Positions 1,508 through 33,658 of a stretch of DNA of 64,000 nt are shown piece after piece. Position 1 is the stretch's first letter. Every line of letters starts with the position of its first letter. The stretch lies in the NCBI RefSeq assembly GCF_036242395.1, contig NZ_CP108458.1, positions 4,650,001 through 4,714,000 on the forward strand, written 5' to 3'. The notes beneath the pieces were generated by a model that was not told where the DNA came from, searched no databases, and was given only the letters and a program-made list of their open reading frames with translations. Source of the stretch: Kitasatospora sp. NBC_01266. Its GTDB lineage: Bacteria > Actinomycetota > Actinomycetes > Streptomycetales > Streptomycetaceae. The translations under genes and the position numbers were made by a program.

Positions 1508-3091
1508 TCAGGCGCTCTGCTCCCACGGCCAGGCGGCGTCGGCTCCCCGTTCCAGCAGCGGGATCAGCCGGAAGGCGGCGTCGCCGAGCCCGCCGAAGGT
1601 GTGCCGGTGGGCGCCGCCGGACGGCCCGTGGCCGAAGCGGTAGCCGGCCAGGTTCCAGGTGTAGACGGGCACCCGGTCCGGCACGGCGGCCAGCGGGTCG
1701 TCACCGTGGTAGCCGTAGCCGGTCTGCTCGTCGGTGATGATCACCACCCGGTCGTGGCCCTGGTAGTGCGTGCGCACCGCCTCGGCGGTCTTGGTGCCGC
1801 CCAGGTTCTGGAAGCGCTGCAGCACGGCGAGCACCGACTCGCCGCGGTGCACCTCGACCACTCGGCTGGTGCTGCCGAACTCCACCAGGTCGGCGTCGGC
1901 GGCGCGGACCTTCAGCGCGGTGCCGAAGATCGCCGCCGAGTCGGCCCGGTTGAGGCCGCTGCGCTGGCTCGGCCGGTCGAACATCGAGACGGACCGGTCC
2001 ACCAGGATCAGGGTGCGCCCGCCCAGTGCCGGGACGCCGCGCAGCGAGTGGCCGAGTGCCTTCTCCAGCGGGTAGGCCCAGCGCAGCGACGGGGCGTGCT
2101 GGTAGGCGGCCAGGTAGCGGAACGGGAACTGCCGGGAGCGGCGCACCTCGTCCGGGTCGCTCAGCTTGGCGGCCACCCGCTCGGCGACCTCGTCGCCGAC
2201 CCCGGCCTCGTCGAAGTTGCGCAGGTTGCGCACCAGCGCCATCGACCCCATGGACGGGATGATCGCCTCCCAGGCCGCCGCGTCCAGCGGTCCCCGCAGC
2301 CAGCCCGCCAGTGCCTCCCAGGTCAGCCCGGCCGCCGCCAACCGCTCGGCGGCGCCCGGCCCGGTGAGCACCGCCCGGCGTTGCTCGACCGGCAGCGTCA
2401 GCAACTCGTGGTTGGCGGTGAGCAGCGCGTCGCCGGCCGGCGGGACGGCCTCGGCCGGGTGGTGGCGGCGGTCCAGCGCGTACTTGAACAGCTCGCCCTG
2501 GCCGGCCCGCTGCGGGTCCGGGCTCGGGTGGGTCAGCTCCAGCACGTCGGCGAACCGGAAGCCACGGCTCGCGGTGTCGTACTTGAGCAGCGCCTGGCTG
2601 GTGTAGAGGCGGCGCACGGCGTCCGCGACGCCGCGCTTGACCGGCTGCGGCAGGCGGTGGCCGTAGCGCGAGGTCCAGTAGGCGAGCAGCTCACCGGGCT
2701 CGTCGGGGCGGCGCAGCACGGTCTCCACGGCCTGCCGGGAGAAGCCGGGCGCCTTGGCGTCCAGCCGGGCCCGGGTGAACTCGGCCGCGCCGACCAGCGC
2801 GGCGGTGCGCATGTTCGCCTCGCCGCGCAGCCAGCGCAGCAGGCCCAGCGTCCACTGCGGGTCCGCGACGGCCAACTCGCGCACCAGCGCGGTGAAGCGG
2901 TCGTCGCGGGCGCCGCCGGACTCGTAGAAGGTCTCCTGGCCGACCAGGTTGGCGACCGAGAGGAGGAAGAGTTCCGACTTCGGCTCGCGCAGGTGACCCG
3001 TGCCGCCCTCGTGGTTGACGGCCTGCTCGCCGGTGCTGCGGACGGGCGAACGGGGCGGCGCGATGCGGTTCCTGAGGTTGAAGCGGGCCAT
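1508..3091 (-). CDS. rsr: TROVE-domain Ro60 orthologue (Rsr), Y RNA-binding protein
   Basis: 527 residues from the ATG at 3091, which has AGGGGGA about 9 bases upstream; a longer in-frame reading exists but its extra N-terminus is non-coding in character. The first ~330 residues form the HEAT-like TROVE ring (ENV-type blocks such as ELFLLSVANLVGQETFYESG and LRWLRGEANMRTAALVGA). The last ~170 are a von Willebrand A domain with an intact MIDAS: DRSVSM, then T in GGTKTAEAV, then ITDE. In animals and in Deinococcus/Salmonella this family binds the ends of misfolded RNAs in the ring and a Y RNA on its outer surface; in bacteria it tethers to polynucleotide phosphorylase. Two Y-type RNA elements lie immediately upstream on the same strand, which supports the assignment strongly. 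A hairpin stands in the 5' leader. Confidence 0.92.
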   Translation of the reverse strand: MARFNLRNRIAPPRSPVRSTGEQAVNHEGGTGHLREPKSELFLLSVANLVGQETFYESGGARDDRFTALVRELAVADPQWTLGLLRWLRGEANMRTAALVGAAEFTRARLDAKAPGFSRQAVETVLRRPDEPGELLAYWTSRYGHRLPQPVKRGVADAVRRLYTSQALLKYDTASRGFRFADVLELTHPSPDPQRAGQGELFKYALDRRHHPAEAVPPAGDALLTANHELLTLPVEQRRAVLTGPGAAERLAAAGLTWEALAGWLRGPLDAAAWEAIIPSMGSMALVRNLRNFDEAGVGDEVAERVAAKLSDPDEVRRSRQFPFRYLAAYQHAPSLRWAYPLEKALGHSLRGVPALGGRTLILVDRSVSMFDRPSQRSGLNRADSAAIFGTALKVRAADADLVEFGSTSRVVEVHRGESVLAVLQRFQNLGGTKTAEAVRTHYQGHDRVVIITDEQTGYGYHGDDPLAAVPDRVPVYTWNLAGYRFGHGPSGGAHRHTFGGLGDAAFRLIPLLERGADAAWPWEQSA

Positions 3092-3180: not shown

Positions 3181-3206
3181 TGCTGCGATGCCTCCCGAGA
3201 TCAAGG

Positions 3207-3277
3207 GCGACGGCGGGTTTGGGTGACTTCAACGCGCCCGAGGGCACTCCATCGGAAGTAACCGCCGTCCGCGCACC
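3207..3277 (-). ncRNA. Second, short Y RNA-like element (or Ro60-binding leader of rsr)
   Basis: Read leftward, GGTGCGC (3277-3271) and GGTTACTTCC (3263-3254) repeat the 5' motifs of the larger Y RNA upstream. The partner motif GTCACC (3227-3222) is also repeated. The element folds: 3262-3272 pairs with 3207-3216 (ten base pairs with one bulged G), and 3256-3263 can pair with 3222-3229 (GGTTACTT with AAGTCACC, one U-C mismatch); the two share two bases and so compete at their edge. The same mismatch occurs at the same place in the larger RNA. The tRNA-like domain is absent here, replaced by a short GC-rich loop. It may be an independent small Y RNA ended by the hairpin at 3155-3180, or part of the rsr 5' leader that lets Ro60 bind its own message. 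Boundaries are approximate. Confidence 0.55.
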
Positions 3278-3302
3278 GGGAGGTGCGGCGTATTCACGAA
3301 TA

Positions 3303-3441
3303 GGTGTCCAGAGATCAGAGAGCGGCTGAGGTGACAAGAACTGCTCTACCAACTGAGCTACCGCCGGACGAACCGACGACCGGGACTCGAACCCGGGACC
3401 CGTCCATTAAGGGAAGTAACCCCGACCTGCGCACCTGGACA
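3303..3441 (-). ncRNA. Bacterial Y RNA with a circularly permuted tRNA-like domain
   Basis: Read leftward, a 7-bp terminal stem TGTCCAG/CTGGACA (3441-3435 with 3311-3305) closes the RNA. Inside it GGGGTTAC (3423-3416) pairs with GTCACCTC (3335-3328) with one U-C mismatch, the likely Ro60-binding helix. Beyond that lies a tRNA-like module in the wrong order: first a perfect T-arm (3396-3380, stem CCGGG/CCCGG, loop TTCGAGT), then an acceptor-like stem CGTCGG/CCGGCG capped by a TTCGT loop (3378-3362), then a canonical D-arm (3358-3343, GCTC/GAGC with GG in the loop). No anticodon arm follows. This T-arm, capped acceptor, D-arm order is the known architecture of bacterial YrlA-type Y RNAs and rules out an ordinary tRNA. 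Its position just upstream of the TROVE gene agrees. A TACAGT -10 box lies 7 bases before the 5' end. Confidence 0.88.
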
Positions 3442-3447
3442 GGGACG

Positions 3448-3453
3448 ACTGTA
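3448..3453 (-). promoter_or_regulatory. Candidate -10 box for the Y RNA
   Basis: TACAGT on the minus strand, spaced so that initiation would fall at about 3441, the first base of the closing stem of the Y RNA. No good -35 hexamer is visible 17 bases upstream. Confidence 0.4.
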
Positions 3454-3493: not shown

Positions 3494-5017
3494 CTACGCG
3501 GGCGCCGCCAGCACCACCCGGGCCCGCTCCGTCAACTCCCGTACCCGGCGCTCGCCTTGGAAAGGCTCCAGCTGGCGCAGCATCTCCAGCACGTACTCCC
3601 GGCTGCGCTGCGAGGAGATCCGGCCGGCCACCTCCACCGCCCGCTCGCCGGCCTCGACGGCGGCGTCCAGGTTGCCCGCTTCCGCCTCCGCCATCGCGGA
3701 GACCACCAGGCGCAGGCCGTGCGAGCGGACGAAGCCCTCGGTTGGCCGGGCCAGCGCCTCGCGGGTGAACTGGCGGACCTTGGCGGGCACTCCGAGGTCG
3801 CGGAAGCACTCGGCGGCGTCGGCGGCCAGGCGGTCGTAGGCGTAGAAGTCGATCCAGGCGGGATCGGGGTCGCCGGGGCGGGAGCGTTCGAGGGCGTTCT
3901 CGGCGGCGGCGAGTGCCGTCGAGGAGGCCGCCGCGTTGCCGGCCCGCGCCTGGGCCCGGGCCTCCACCAGGTGGAAGAAGCTCATCGTGCGGGTGGTGGC
4001 CAGACCCCGGTTGCGCTCCAGCGCCGCCTGGGCCAGGTCGACCGCCTCCTCGGCGAAGCCGCGGTAGCAGGCCTGCAGGCTCATCGAGGCCAGCACGTAG
4101 CCGCCGAGCGGCACGTCGGCGGCGGCTCGGGCCAGCCGCAGCGCCTGGATGTAGTAGCGCTGGGCGGCCTCGTGCTGGCCGGTGTCGAAGGCCATCCAGC
4201 CGGCCAGCCTGGTCAGTTCGGCGGTCGCGCCGAACAGCGCCCGGCCGACCGCGTCGCTGTAGGAGGCGAGCAGCAGCGGGGCCGCCTCGACCCGCAGGCA
4301 CTCCGGCACCATGGACGAACGCCAGTCGCCGCCACCGTACTTGGAGTCCCAGCGGCGCGCCTCCTGGGCGGCCTCGCGCAGCTTGGCGGCGTCGGACTGG
4401 CCGACCCGGTAGACGGCCGAGCGGGGCGCGGGGAGGGGGAGGGCTGGTGCGGGGGCCTTCTCGGGCGCGGGGTTCGCGGGGTTCGCGGGAGCCGGGGCGG
4501 TCGGGGCGGTCGGGGCGGCGTTCGGCGGCTCGTCCGTGCCGCGGGCCACCGAGCTGTCGACCGGGTTGATCAGCCAGCGGGCGACCGGCGTCGAGTACGC
4601 CGCGACCGAGAAGGTCCCGGCCAGCGCGTCGCTCCACCGTCCGCCGCCGGGGCCGCGCCGCAGCTCCAGGTCGACCCGCCACAGGTCGGTGGCGGAGCGC
4701 ACCGCCTCGGCCACCGCGCGCGGAAAGGCCAGGCCCAGCTCGGGCGTCGGATCGGTGTCGCCGAGCCCGATCTCCTCCAGCGGCACCGGGCGGCCCAGCT
4801 TGCCGCCGATCGCGGTGGCGATCAGGTGCGGTACCGGCCCCTGCGGCACCATGCCCTTGCTCACCCAGCGGGCCACCGAGGTCTTGTCGTAGCGCAGCGT
4901 CAGGCCGCGCTGGGCGCCGAGGTCGTTGACCCGGCGGGCCAGGCCGGCGTTGCTGATCTGAGCCTGGGTCAGCAGGGTGCCGAGACGCTCGTTCGGTCCC
5001 CGTGGACTGATGCTCAT
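3494..5017 (-). CDS. nsdA: NsdA-like regulatory protein (HTH-like N-terminus, TPR-like C-terminus)
   Basis: 507 residues. The N-terminal ~85 residues ([23 protein letters not shown] ... [20 protein letters not shown]) look like an XRE-type helix-turn-helix. A Pro/Ala-rich linker follows near residues 160-195. The remaining ~300 residues are helical repeats of TPR type (for example [20 protein letters not shown]). This arrangement is that of the Streptomyces NsdA family, negative regulators of sporulation and antibiotic production; the symbol rests on remembered resemblance. Start ATG at 5017 is preceded by AAGGGGG. The stop lies about 50 bases before the Y RNA, so NsdA transcripts may read into it unless terminated. 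A general TPR regulator of another subfamily is the alternative. Confidence 0.7.
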
Positions 5018-6112
5018 TCGACGGCACCCCCTTGTTCGGTGTTTGCCGTTCGGTGTGCTGCGGTGGTGCTGCGGTGGTGCTGCGGCCGCGGGCCGGTCGG
5101 CCCGGCGTCGGCGGTACCTAGCGTAGTCGGCCGGGTTCCCAGGGTTAAGGGGAAGCATTCCGGATGGCGGGATCGCATAGGGGCATCGGGGCGCGGTTCG
5201 TTGCCGCCGGGGCGGTCGCGGGGTGGTGCGGGGGCGGGCCGGGCGTTGTTCTCGGGGTTCGTCCGGGGCGACCGGTGCCCGGCGGCCCATGGGGAGGGGC
5301 GTGCTCCGGTCCTGTGTTGACGTGCGCCCACCTGTGCCCCCTGGCTCGAGCGGCTGCCCAGCAGTTCGCTAGGGGCTGTGGGTCGGCCCGCCGTCGAGGA
5401 CCCGGCGGGCCGGGGGATGCCGCTGCCTCAGTTCCCCGCGGGTGGTGGCCGAGGTCCGGGAGGGCATGCGGATGCCCTCCCGGGCTTGCGACACTTTTTG
5501 GCCATCTGGGCATGACCATGGCGTAATCGGGGAGTCGGCGCGGGGCGGGTCGGCCGGTGTCGATGTGCACAGGTGTGCCTCGCGTGCCCTGTGTGCGTGG
5601 TGAGCAAGGCGAGCGGGGGTTGGCCCGACCGGTGCGCTGCGGACCGGCCGTGCACTCGGGGCCGGGTGCGCGGCCCGGGGTGCGCGGTCCGGCCGGTCGC
5701 TGCCGGACCTGCTCGCCTCGGTGCGGGCGCCGCGAATCGGACGCGCGGCGCCCGCGCCGGTCCGCCCGCCGTCCGCACTGGTCCGCCCGCCGGTCGGTTC
5801 GCCGTCCCCACGGGCCGTCCAGTACGGACGGTGCGTCAGATGCCGCCCGGCCGGCCGCCGGACGCCGTCCCTCCAGCGGCCGGCCGGGCACCAGCGACTC
5901 GGGAGGCCCGGCCCGCGCGGCACTCCACGTCCGGGCCGGCCGCAGTGCCCAGAATGCCCGAAATCGCCCGTAGCTCCCCAGAATCACCCGACCTTCACCC
6001 GCGGACCCCGGGCGCCTCCGCAGTGGCACCATGTCCCTTGGCTCGCCCGCGGCCGGCTCCTGACCGCCCGCCGCGCGCGAGCGCAGGGACGTCCACACCT
6101 GGTGGAGGCGCG
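5018..6112. other. Gene-free region of about 1.1 kb
   Basis: Divergent upstream region between the NsdA-like gene and the asparagine-synthetase-like gene. Open frames exist on both strands, but all are Arg/Pro/Gly-rich with no credible protein character. No lasso-peptide precursor could be found here. The only clear structure is the hairpin at 5456-5483. Confidence 0.6.
5456..5483. terminator. Perfect 12-bp inverted repeat with a 4-base loop
   Basis: CCGGGAGGGCAT at 5456-5467 and ATGCCCTCCCGG at 5472-5483 are exact complements around a GCGG loop. On the plus strand a run of five T lies at 5494-5498, about ten bases downstream. No recognised gene ends here, so it may terminate an unannotated small RNA or act as a transcription barrier between divergent genes. 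Confidence 0.5.
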
Positions 6113-27945: not shown

Positions 27946-28545
27946 TGTTCTTCGAGCTGCCTGTCAGGGAGCACCGGACGTTCACTTCTGTGCGGACGGA
28001 CCCGAGCGCAGCCACTCTCTCGAAACACCACTCTCAGCAAGATCGTCGATCGCTGACGTGTCGCTTTTTGCACACTTCTGCGATGGGCTTGTTTTGCTGT
28101 GCCGGTAATTCGGTGAGTGCGGCCGGATTCGCTTTTCGGAGCGGAACTGGGCTAAAGTTCAACACGTCGGACGGGCCGTCAGGTCCGGTACGGCGAAGGC
28201 CTCCTGGAGGCCGAAGCGGTGCGGAAGACCTGGTAAGGTTGGAAACACCGAGAGCGAGTCGGGAAACGCCGAGAGGCGGGTCTGATAAGCTCGAAGAGAA
28301 GAAAGAACGAAGCGCCCGGAGAGCTTGCGAGAGCGGCTTGAAGGAAGCGTCCGTTCCTTGAGAACTCAACAGCGTGCCAAAAGTCAACGCCAGATATGTT
28401 GACATCCCCGGCCTCGATCGTTTGATCGGGGTTGGAGATTCCTTTTGAAGTAAAACACTGGCGAGGACGCAGTGCACGAGGTCACCCTATTCCGGTGGTT
28501 GTCGTGCCGCTCAACGCGGGTGTCGACCCGATTACGGGAAAACAT
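27946..28545 (+). promoter_or_regulatory. rRNA promoter and leader region
   Basis: About 600 bases without a gene before 16S. Several -10-like boxes in the streptomycete rrn style are visible: TAAAGT (28153-28158), TAAGGT (28234-28239) and TAAGCT (28286-28291), the latter two followed by GGAAACACC-like or CTCGAAGAG start-site text. Further on, GTTGACATCCCCGG and a CGATC-loop-GATCG hairpin (about 28400-28435) mark the antitermination/processing leader. Multiple tandem promoters are normal for these operons. Confidence 0.6.
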
Positions 28546-33458
<4,913 letters not shown>

Positions 33459-33539
33459 AGTTGCTCGCGTCCACTGTGTTGTTCTGAAACAACGACCCCA
33501 CGCCAGGTCACGGTGTGGTGCGGTTGACAGTTTCATAGT

Positions 33540-33658
33540 GTTTCGGTGGTCATAGCGTGAGGGAAACGCCCGGTTACATTCCGAACCCGGAAGCTAAGCC
33601 TCATAGCGCCGATGGTACTGCAGGGGGGACCCTGTGGGAGAGTAGGACGCCGCCGAAC
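33540..33658 (+). rRNA. rrf: 5S ribosomal RNA
   Basis: About 119 bases, from GTTTCGGTGGTCATAGCG to GACGCCGCCGAAC, with paired ends and the internal CGAACCCGGAAGCTAAG motif. It follows 23S after about 80 bases. Confidence 0.95.

What the first reader, a model, noticed from the sequence alone, without database searches (positions are those of the whole stretch)
3303..3441. Y RNA with a circularly permuted tRNA domain directly upstream of a Ro60 gene
Seen: perfect T-arm, UUCG-type-capped acceptor stem and perfect D-arm in that order, inside a terminal stem and a conserved internal helix, with a -10 box at the right distance and a TROVE gene just downstream. Known: bacterial YrlA-type Y RNAs mimic tRNA in just this permuted order and are encoded next to rsr. 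Inferred: this organism assembles a Ro60-Y RNA particle, probably with polynucleotide phosphorylase. For a streptomycete this RNA is, as far as I know, uncharacterised.
Basis: partly seen in the sequence, partly recalled or inferred. Interest (0 to 1): 0.92.

Follow-up and report, generated by a model that had tools for sequence, protein, structure and literature searches.

The report
Ro60-linked Y RNA mimicking a tRNA
Next to its Ro60 gene this actinobacterium carries a small structured RNA shaped like a tRNA with its pieces in rotated order, a bacterial Y RNA, and its relatives show that such RNAs often also imitate the anticodon arm and switch which tRNA they resemble.

Summary
The element is real and lies on the minus strand (3440-3306), about 215 nt before a Ro60/TROVE gene on that strand. 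T-arm, loop-capped acceptor stem and D-arm stand in permuted order inside a terminal stem and an internal helix. 62 such units from 61 of 81 Ro60 loci covary strongly (98.7% of cells paired, 18 pairs changed on both sides), and a profile built without close relatives finds only this place in the window (E 1.5e-15). It is a bacterial Y RNA, though below Rfam's YrlA cut-off (40.2 against 69 bits), and tandem tRNA genes score nearly as high.

(2) In most relatives the first unit also has a complete anticodon arm with varying anticodons; half of the viral units examined do too. In the window this arm is degenerate. (3) The third unit switches tRNA type. (4) An unrelated protein, DUF7873, is followed by an RNA with two permuted tRNA modules in this genome, its genus and phages. 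Expression, Ro60 binding and PNPase were not testable.

The parts
3306..3440 (-). Y1: Y RNA unit with permuted tRNA module (finding gave 3303-3441)
   Evidence: alignment A1 and covariation; CM R1 129.5 bits, window among the training rows; leave-out nhmmer E 1.5e-15
3448..3453 (-). TACAGT, -10-like box 7 nt before the first base of Y1
   Evidence: TAnnnT at this offset in 59 of 62 Y1 units, 1 of 69 Y2 and 0 of 64 Y3 units
3380..3396 (-). T-arm CCGGG UUCGAGU CCCGG
3361..3379 (-). acceptor-like stem UCGUCGG/CCGGCGG capped by UUCGU
   Evidence: helix 6 has changes on both sides in 6 of 7 pairs
3343..3358 (-). D-arm GCUC AGUUGGUA GAGC
   Evidence: stem invariant
3403..3414 (-). degenerate anticodon-arm position: UCC-CUUAAU-GGA (3 bp, 6-nt loop); alternative open stem with 4 pairs to the bases after the D-arm
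3191..3283 (-). Y2: Y RNA unit without a tRNA module
   Evidence: same terminal stem, GGUGCG and ACUUC motifs as Y2 in 68 other loci (39 of the 69 aligned); R1 45.2 bits, second best in the genome
3155..3180 (.). GC-rich hairpin where relatives have a third Y unit (Y3 not found here)
   Evidence: read; no third R1 hit here
1508..3091 (-). Ro60/TROVE protein gene (rsr), 527 aa
   Evidence: Pfam TROVE 52.5 bits; PDB 9l5y and 9kop TROVE proteins matched over two stretches, residues 13-208 and 247-517, E about 2e-32

Best explanation
Y1 is a bacterial Y RNA that works with the Ro60 protein encoded just downstream. Transcription most likely starts at the first base of Y1 and runs through Y2 into rsr; the Y units are then cut out (inferred). 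The base of each unit (terminal stem, GGUGCG and ACUUC motifs, internal helix), shared by units with and without a tRNA module, is the Ro60-binding part (inferred from conservation and from known Y RNAs). The permuted tRNA module projects from the particle and is recognised as tRNA by modification enzymes, nucleases or an effector such as PNPase (inferred from Salmonella and Deinococcus work). In most relatives Y1 also carries an anticodon arm, so the module can imitate nearly the whole tRNA except a free acceptor end.
For: 62 Y1 units from 61 of 81 loci: 2082 cells, 98.7% paired, 18 of 38 pairs changed on both sides, against 3-5 when slid. Y1+Y3 alignment of 34 chosen rows: 96.7% paired, 129 double-change cells against 3-18 when slid. 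At least one unit lies upstream in 81 of 81 loci (80 loci kept as the best of 162 TROVE relatives, plus the window). Leave-out profile: one hit in 64 kb. Promoter box before Y1. Genus co-occurrence 22 both, 2 TROVE only, 2 RNA only, 5 neither of 31; phylum, 296 genomes: all 8 genomes with an R1 hit of 60 bits or more are among the 9 with TROVE.
Against: Rfam YrlA score below gathering and nearly matched by tandem tRNAs. Folding energy not unusual. 2 of 24 TROVE genomes of the genus (G009, G026) and 1 of 9 in the phylum set (G229) show no strong RNA hit. Strong units also lie where the stretch read shows no TROVE (G002:C304, G013:C276). A TAnnnT also stands 25 nt before Y2 in 10 of 69 units, so a second start is not excluded in some species. 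No expression or binding data.
Confidence: 0.9

Rival explanations
1. The units are a structured 5' leader that regulates the rsr mRNA in cis (for example autoregulation by Ro60), not free RNAs.
For: A conserved promoter box before Y1 and units that fill the space up to the rsr start.
Against: Each unit closes with its own terminal stem; G006 keeps a unit at the syntenic place although no TROVE is found in that genome; strong units lie elsewhere in G002 and G013. YrlA elsewhere is described as a separate RNA (PMC8394870, passages).
Confidence: 0.1
2. Remnant of two adjacent tRNA genes (3' part of one, 5' part of the next).
For: Tandem tRNA genes mimic the models: L002, L004, L005 and the 22 weak phylum loci checked, which all hold tRNA genes.
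Against: ARAGORN finds no tRNA gene in the window; covariation of the terminal and internal helices outside the tRNA core; conserved motifs shared with the tRNA-less Y2.
Confidence: 0.01
3. In the family as a whole the tRNA module, above all the anticodon arm, is bait for anticodon nucleases or part of tRNA repair, protecting real tRNAs; Ro60 holds or hands over the cut RNA.
For: Complete 5-bp anticodon arms in 51 of 62 Y1; 25 of 50 viral units closed against 4.0 by shuffling, 16 with loop NUNNUAA against 0.03; Ro-like genes within phage tRNA clusters and next to an RNA ligase in phage Kela, 1 of the 7 phage Ro loci viewed. Hughes 2020 suggests that YrlA may competitively inhibit an anticodon nuclease (PMC7790460, passages).
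Against: YrlA was not cut by the Salmonella nuclease (same paper). Y3 units and the window's Y1 lack a complete arm. Single-sequence folding gives the arm only 0.19-0.27 probability in L025 and about 0.11-0.12 for the window's short hairpin. In the window's genome the RtcB gene lies about 1.1 Mb away.
Confidence: 0.3

Closest known systems
Salmonella YrlA / Rfam RF02553 bacterial Y RNA
   Same: Terminal stem, internal helix, T-arm, capped acceptor stem and D-arm in permuted order, beside a Ro60 gene; an open anticodon-stem position is possible in the window's Y1.
   Different: 28.8 bits below the Rfam cut-off; the Rfam consensus and a review (PMC8394870, passages) show only D, T and acceptor arms; most streptomycete Y1 units and half of the viral units examined add an anticodon arm.
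Salmonella yrlBA pair (operon rsr-yrlBA-rtcBA)
   Same: Several Y RNAs next to one rsr (operon name from PMC7790460, passages); one unit without a tRNA module (YrlB as tRNA-less is recalled).
   Different: Units lie upstream of rsr, mostly up to three, four in L012, with up to six R1 hits in one viral locus, L254; the RtcB gene is not beside them but about 1.1 Mb away in the window's genome.
Mycobacterium smegmatis and phage Ro/Y systems
   Same: Actinobacterial and phage TROVE with Y RNAs; mycobacterial TROVE is thought phage-derived (PMC8628891, passages); M. smegmatis Y RNA is cited in a review (PMC4726728, passages).
   Different: The Y sequences of those papers were not available for comparison.

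Membership tests
Rfam RF02553 (YrlA) as curated | score at or above the gathering score of 69 bits | tested here: not met
   40.2 bits. Not filed as an Rfam RF02553 member.
Bacterial Y RNAs (Ro60-linked) | encoded beside a Ro60/TROVE gene | tested here: met
   TROVE gene about 215 nt downstream; units in 81 of 81 loci
Bacterial Y RNAs (Ro60-linked) | terminal stem closing 5' and 3' ends | tested here: met
   7 bp, 99.7% of cells paired
Bacterial Y RNAs (Ro60-linked) | at least one RNA with D, T and acceptor arms in permuted order | tested here: met
Bacterial Y RNAs (Ro60-linked) | anticodon stem open towards the base, no anticodon loop (as in the Rfam YrlA consensus) | tested here: inconclusive
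   window: open 4 pairs, closed hairpin 3; the nearest relative L007 has only 1 open and 3 closed. Of 62 Y1: closed only 33, both 24, open only 4, neither 1. I treat this as variation, not as a defining feature.
Bacterial Y RNAs (Ro60-linked) | transcribed and bound by Ro60 | not testable with these tools
   no RNA or protein data
RYPER (Ro60-Y RNA-PNPase) | PNPase tethered by the Y RNA | not testable with these tools
   no binding data
Ro60/TROVE proteins | homology over most of the length to solved TROVE proteins | tested here: met
   residues 13-208 and 247-517 of 527 matched to 9l5y/9kop; Pfam TROVE over cut-off

The most novel reading that the evidence does not exclude
In streptomycetes and their phages, Ro60 particles display an exchangeable, nearly complete tRNA copy, anticodon arm included, as bait or sensor for anticodon nucleases and tRNA-modifying enzymes. 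Selection keeps the loop shape (U33, U36, A37, A38, as in tRNAs that read ANN codons) while the anticodon itself keeps changing. A second, unrelated protein family, DUF7873, has evolved the same trick with an RNA that carries two permuted tRNA modules, so permuted tRNA mimicry would be a general principle of phage and host RNPs.
Probability: 0.3. Interest if true: 0.87.

Novelty: new variant of a known kind. Interest (0 to 1): 0.62.

Why it matters
Bacterial Y RNAs are known to copy part of a tRNA, but why is open. The anticodon arm, the frequent change of tRNA identity and the place in phage tRNA clusters make the idea of a decoy or sensor for tRNA-cutting enzymes directly testable in Streptomyces, where developmentally regulated tRNA cleavage has been reported (Haiser 2008, seen only as cited in PMC8628891). 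DUF7873 would give a protein family of unknown function a likely RNA partner.

Tried and rejected
Folding energy as evidence: not informative. The first fold was of the plus strand, which is the wrong one. The Rfam YrlA score alone: rejected as proof because tandem tRNA genes score alike. Weak R1 hits across the phylum: not counted; 29 loci were checked by ARAGORN and all 22 weak ones (L124-L145) hold tRNA genes; one strong locus (L121) also got a tRNA-Arg call beside the Y unit. Association of DUF7873 with TROVE within the genus: none visible (17 of 21 DUF7873 genomes and 7 of 10 others have TROVE). DUF7873 fold: AlphaFold2 model with mean pLDDT 88.5, no PDB match with E <= 0.001, no convincing sequence relative in the PDB (best E 0.08). 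NCBIfam gave nothing for three proteins. The class II reading of Y3 rests on the leucine-type D-arm in 16 of 63; a hairpin next to the T-arm was found in only 11 of these 16, and the same loose test also fires at 4 bp or more in 20 of 47 class I units, so the long variable arm is not secure. The unit counts by pattern are lower bounds: R1 finds a Y3 in L063 and a Y1 in L022 that the patterns missed. The module scan had no shuffled control.

Full report
WHAT IS THERE. The finding's coordinates are right but the element is on the minus strand. Read from 3440 to 3306 it has a 7-bp terminal stem GUCCAGG/UCUGGAC, an internal helix, the T-arm CCGGG-UUCGAGU-CCCGG, a 7-bp acceptor-like stem capped by UUCGU, and the D-arm GCUC-AGUUGGUA-GAGC, in that order. 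The TROVE gene runs 3091 to 1508 on the same strand and matches two solved TROVE proteins over two long stretches. ARAGORN finds no tRNA in the window.

IS IT MORE THAN CHANCE. Energy is ordinary (z -0.16). Rfam YrlA matches 3316-3435 minus with 40.2 bits, below its gathering score of 69. In the same genome three tandem tRNA pairs reach 39.3, 33.6 and 32.5 bits with that model, so I did not rely on it. A strict scan for the permuted core gives 1 site in the window and a mean of 0.025 in 40 order-1 Markov windows. A DNA profile built from the 51 of 62 Y1 units that remain when the window, L007-L014 and L017 are left out finds one place in the window, 3440-3306, E 1.5e-15.

THE ARRAY. I fetched 80 Ro60 loci (the best 80 of 162 relatives), all named Streptomyces or Kitasatospora but one (L012, Peterkaempfera). 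With the window that makes 81, and pattern extraction found at least one Y unit upstream in every one. Three types recur, usually in this order: Y1 (in 61 of 81 loci), Y2 (69) and Y3 (63); these counts are lower bounds, since R1 finds units in L063 and L022 that the patterns missed. L012 has four units. The types share GGUGCG and ACUUC motifs and a closing stem. Y1 and Y3 carry tRNA modules; Y2 does not, although in L012 and L009 it keeps what looks like the remains of a T-arm. The window has Y1 and Y2 (3283-3191); Y3 was not found and a GC hairpin stands in its place. The closest locus, L007 (88% identical Ro60), has all three. A TAnnnT box begins 13 nt before Y1 in 59 of 62 units, at that offset before 1 of 69 Y2 and 0 of 64 Y3 units; 10 of 69 Y2 units have one at 25 nt. 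This suggests one main promoter for the array and rsr (inferred).

COVARIATION. Alignment A1 (62 Y1 units, 55 distinct) against my structure: 98.7% of 2082 cells paired, 18 of 38 pairs changed on both sides, 75 such cells; slid versions give 29-47% paired and 3-5 pairs. In a Y1+Y3 alignment of 34 chosen rows: 96.7% paired, 129 double-change cells against 3-18 when slid. The structure was read from one of these sequences, which favours it against the slid versions to some degree.

COVARIANCE MODEL AND CO-OCCURRENCE. Model R1 (34 rows, window included) gives 129.5 bits to Y1 and 45.2 bits to Y2, the two best places of its genome; the next, 43.4 bits, is a place where L005 holds tandem tRNAs. In 31 genomes of the genus: TROVE 24, R1 at E <= 1e-8 24, both 22. 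The two RNA-only genomes are informative: in G006 the RNA sits between the same neighbours and no TROVE is found; in G022 pieces of TROVE lie in different reading frames after it (my reading of the ORF list). TROVE without a strong RNA: G009 and G026. Among 296 genomes of the phylum, 8 have an R1 hit of 60 bits or more and all 8 are among the 9 with TROVE. The 22 weak loci checked hold tRNA genes.

A COMPLETE ANTICODON ARM IN RELATIVES. The Rfam YrlA consensus has no hairpin at the anticodon position, and a review lists only D, T and acceptor similarity (PMC8394870, passages). In 51 of 62 Y1 units a full 5-bp stem with a 7-nt loop ends exactly 5 nt before the T-arm, the length of a normal variable loop. 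Among the 56 units with 4 or 5 pairs in that register, 50 have the loops CUGAUAA (20), CUCAUAA (17), CUCUUAA (6), CUGUUAA (4) or CUGCUAA (3); the other six differ. So U33, U36, A37 and A38 are mostly kept while the anticodon reads GAU, CAU, CUU, GUU or GCU. That these are anticodons for ANN codons, with U36-A37 needed for t6A, is recalled, not tested. On the Ro60 tree loop identity changes at least 30 times, the closed state at least 3 times. The stem covaries (CG to GC in 4, AU to GC in 2 distinct rows; 94.0% of its cells paired). Counting pairs, Y1 is closed only in 33, both possible in 24, open only in 4, neither in 1 of 62, with 2.7 closed expected by shuffling; Y3 is open only in 41, closed in 0 and neither in 5 of the 46 units in which T- and D-arm were found. 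The window's own Y1 counts as open: 4 open pairs against a 3-bp, 6-nt hairpin; its nearest relative L007, with the same short loop, is the one 'neither'. Single-sequence folding favours neither state strongly (0.19-0.27 for the L025 arm, 0.11-0.12 for the window's hairpin).

VIRUSES. 64 phage records encode a relative of this Ro60. I viewed seven: in BRock, Alone3 and Atuin the gene lies inside a tRNA cluster, in Neville tRNA genes follow it, in Kela it directly follows an RNA ligase; no RNA ligase is annotated directly beside it in the other six. From 34 of the 39 viral-contig Ro60 loci, the DUF7873 loci and four phage loci, 52 whole-model R1 hits of 54.8 bits or more were examined; 50 had a T-arm, 25 a closed anticodon arm (4.0 expected by shuffling) and 16 the loop NUNNUAA (0.03 expected). 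Two further closed units, in L218 and L254, read UGG followed by G, as in proline tRNAs (tRNA comparison recalled). An annotated phage 'tRNA' before the Ro gene of Alone3 overlaps a Y unit; those of VanLee and Frankenweenie may be similar and were not checked.

MODULE SWITCHING. Of 63 Y3 units, 16 have a leucine-type D-arm and 47 a class I type (labels recalled), with at least 11 changes on the Ro60 tree. A long variable arm is likely in some of them but the test was weak.

A SECOND SYSTEM. The YrlA search of the own genome also hit two adjacent places with no ARAGORN tRNA (L003, L006; 35.9 and 28.7 bits). They follow a DUF7873 gene. DUF7873 occurs in 21 of 31 genomes of the genus, 6 of 296 in the phylum and 72 phage records. 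After DUF7873 an automatic scan, without a shuffled control, finds at least one permuted module in 47 of 47 loci examined and two or more in 37. A stricter scan finds a core in 21 of 21 loci of the genus and in 2 of 6 phage loci; not in Vibrio phage D517 (L202), which one search left out. Sixteen aligned copies give a consensus with 101 pairs, 25 with changes on both sides. Rfam has no match there at gathering level: in 8 loci, including two with strong viral Y units, only ordinary tRNAs of L198 and L203 are listed. One viral contig holds DUF7873, its two-module RNA, three R1-scored Y units and Ro60 in a row, with small reading frames between (L218/L262). No held paper names DUF7873.

HOW IT WORKS. 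Shown: conserved structure, order, promoter place, link to Ro60. Inferred: processing, Ro60 binding at the base, recognition of the module as tRNA. YrlA is reported as a substrate of tRNA-modifying enzymes, and Rsr-YrlA-PNPase particles as degrading structured RNA (PMC8394870, passages). Hughes 2020 suggests that YrlA may inhibit an anticodon nuclease but found it uncut (PMC7790460, passages). An anticodon arm would make such a role more plausible in Streptomyces; that is my inference.

NOVELTY. The window's RNA is a new member of a known kind. The anticodon arm, the switching modules and the array make the group a new variant, as far as my searches of held papers show (listings, with passages read in six papers). 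The main primary papers were not readable, so prior description cannot be excluded.

Noticed in passing
L106 (G000:C1 about 1919650-1920085, minus), also L087-L107, L192-L196, L198-L201, L207-L224: DUF7873 (PF25283) gene followed by a conserved non-coding RNA with one or, in most loci, two permuted tRNA modules; no Rfam match at gathering level in the loci tested, protein model without a significant PDB match.
   Followed up: partly
L218 2001-4741 / L262: One viral contig holds DUF7873, its two-module RNA, three R1-scored Y units and Ro60 in a row.
   Followed up: partly
Y3 units of L018, L026, L029, L047-L049, L054, L057, L062, L068, L069, L075, L077, L079, L080, L086: Y3 modules with a leucine-type D-arm instead of the class I type; at least 11 switches on the Ro60 tree.
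   Followed up: partly
L183 (G006) and L184 (G022): Y RNA kept where no Ro60 gene is found (G006) or it lies in pieces (G022).
   Followed up: partly
L186 (G002:C304) and L189 (G013:C276): Strong Y RNA hits (120 and 88 bits) with no TROVE gene in the stretch read.
   Followed up: partly
L204 2774-2847, L265 5704-5775, L267 5745-5835: Phage features annotated as tRNA-Ser, tRNA-Arg and tRNA-Pro just upstream of Ro-like genes; L204's overlaps a Y unit, the other two may also be misread Y RNAs.
   Followed up: partly
L206 2229-4665: Streptomyces phage Kela: an RNA ligase gene directly before the Ro-like gene.
   Followed up: partly
Rfam RF02553 used as a genome search: Tandem tRNA genes trigger the model; it rang in 13 of 14 control genomes at E <= 1.
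   Followed up: yes
L226 and L012: A contig of the viral collection has the same length (28182) as the Peterkaempfera contig, so some 'viral' contigs may be bacterial or prophage.
   Followed up: no
window 3494-5018, minus: 508-aa protein upstream of the array without a Pfam or NCBIfam match; a relative keeps this place in L183.
   Followed up: no
window 28545-33658: rRNA operon (16S, 23S, 5S) on the plus strand.
   Followed up: no
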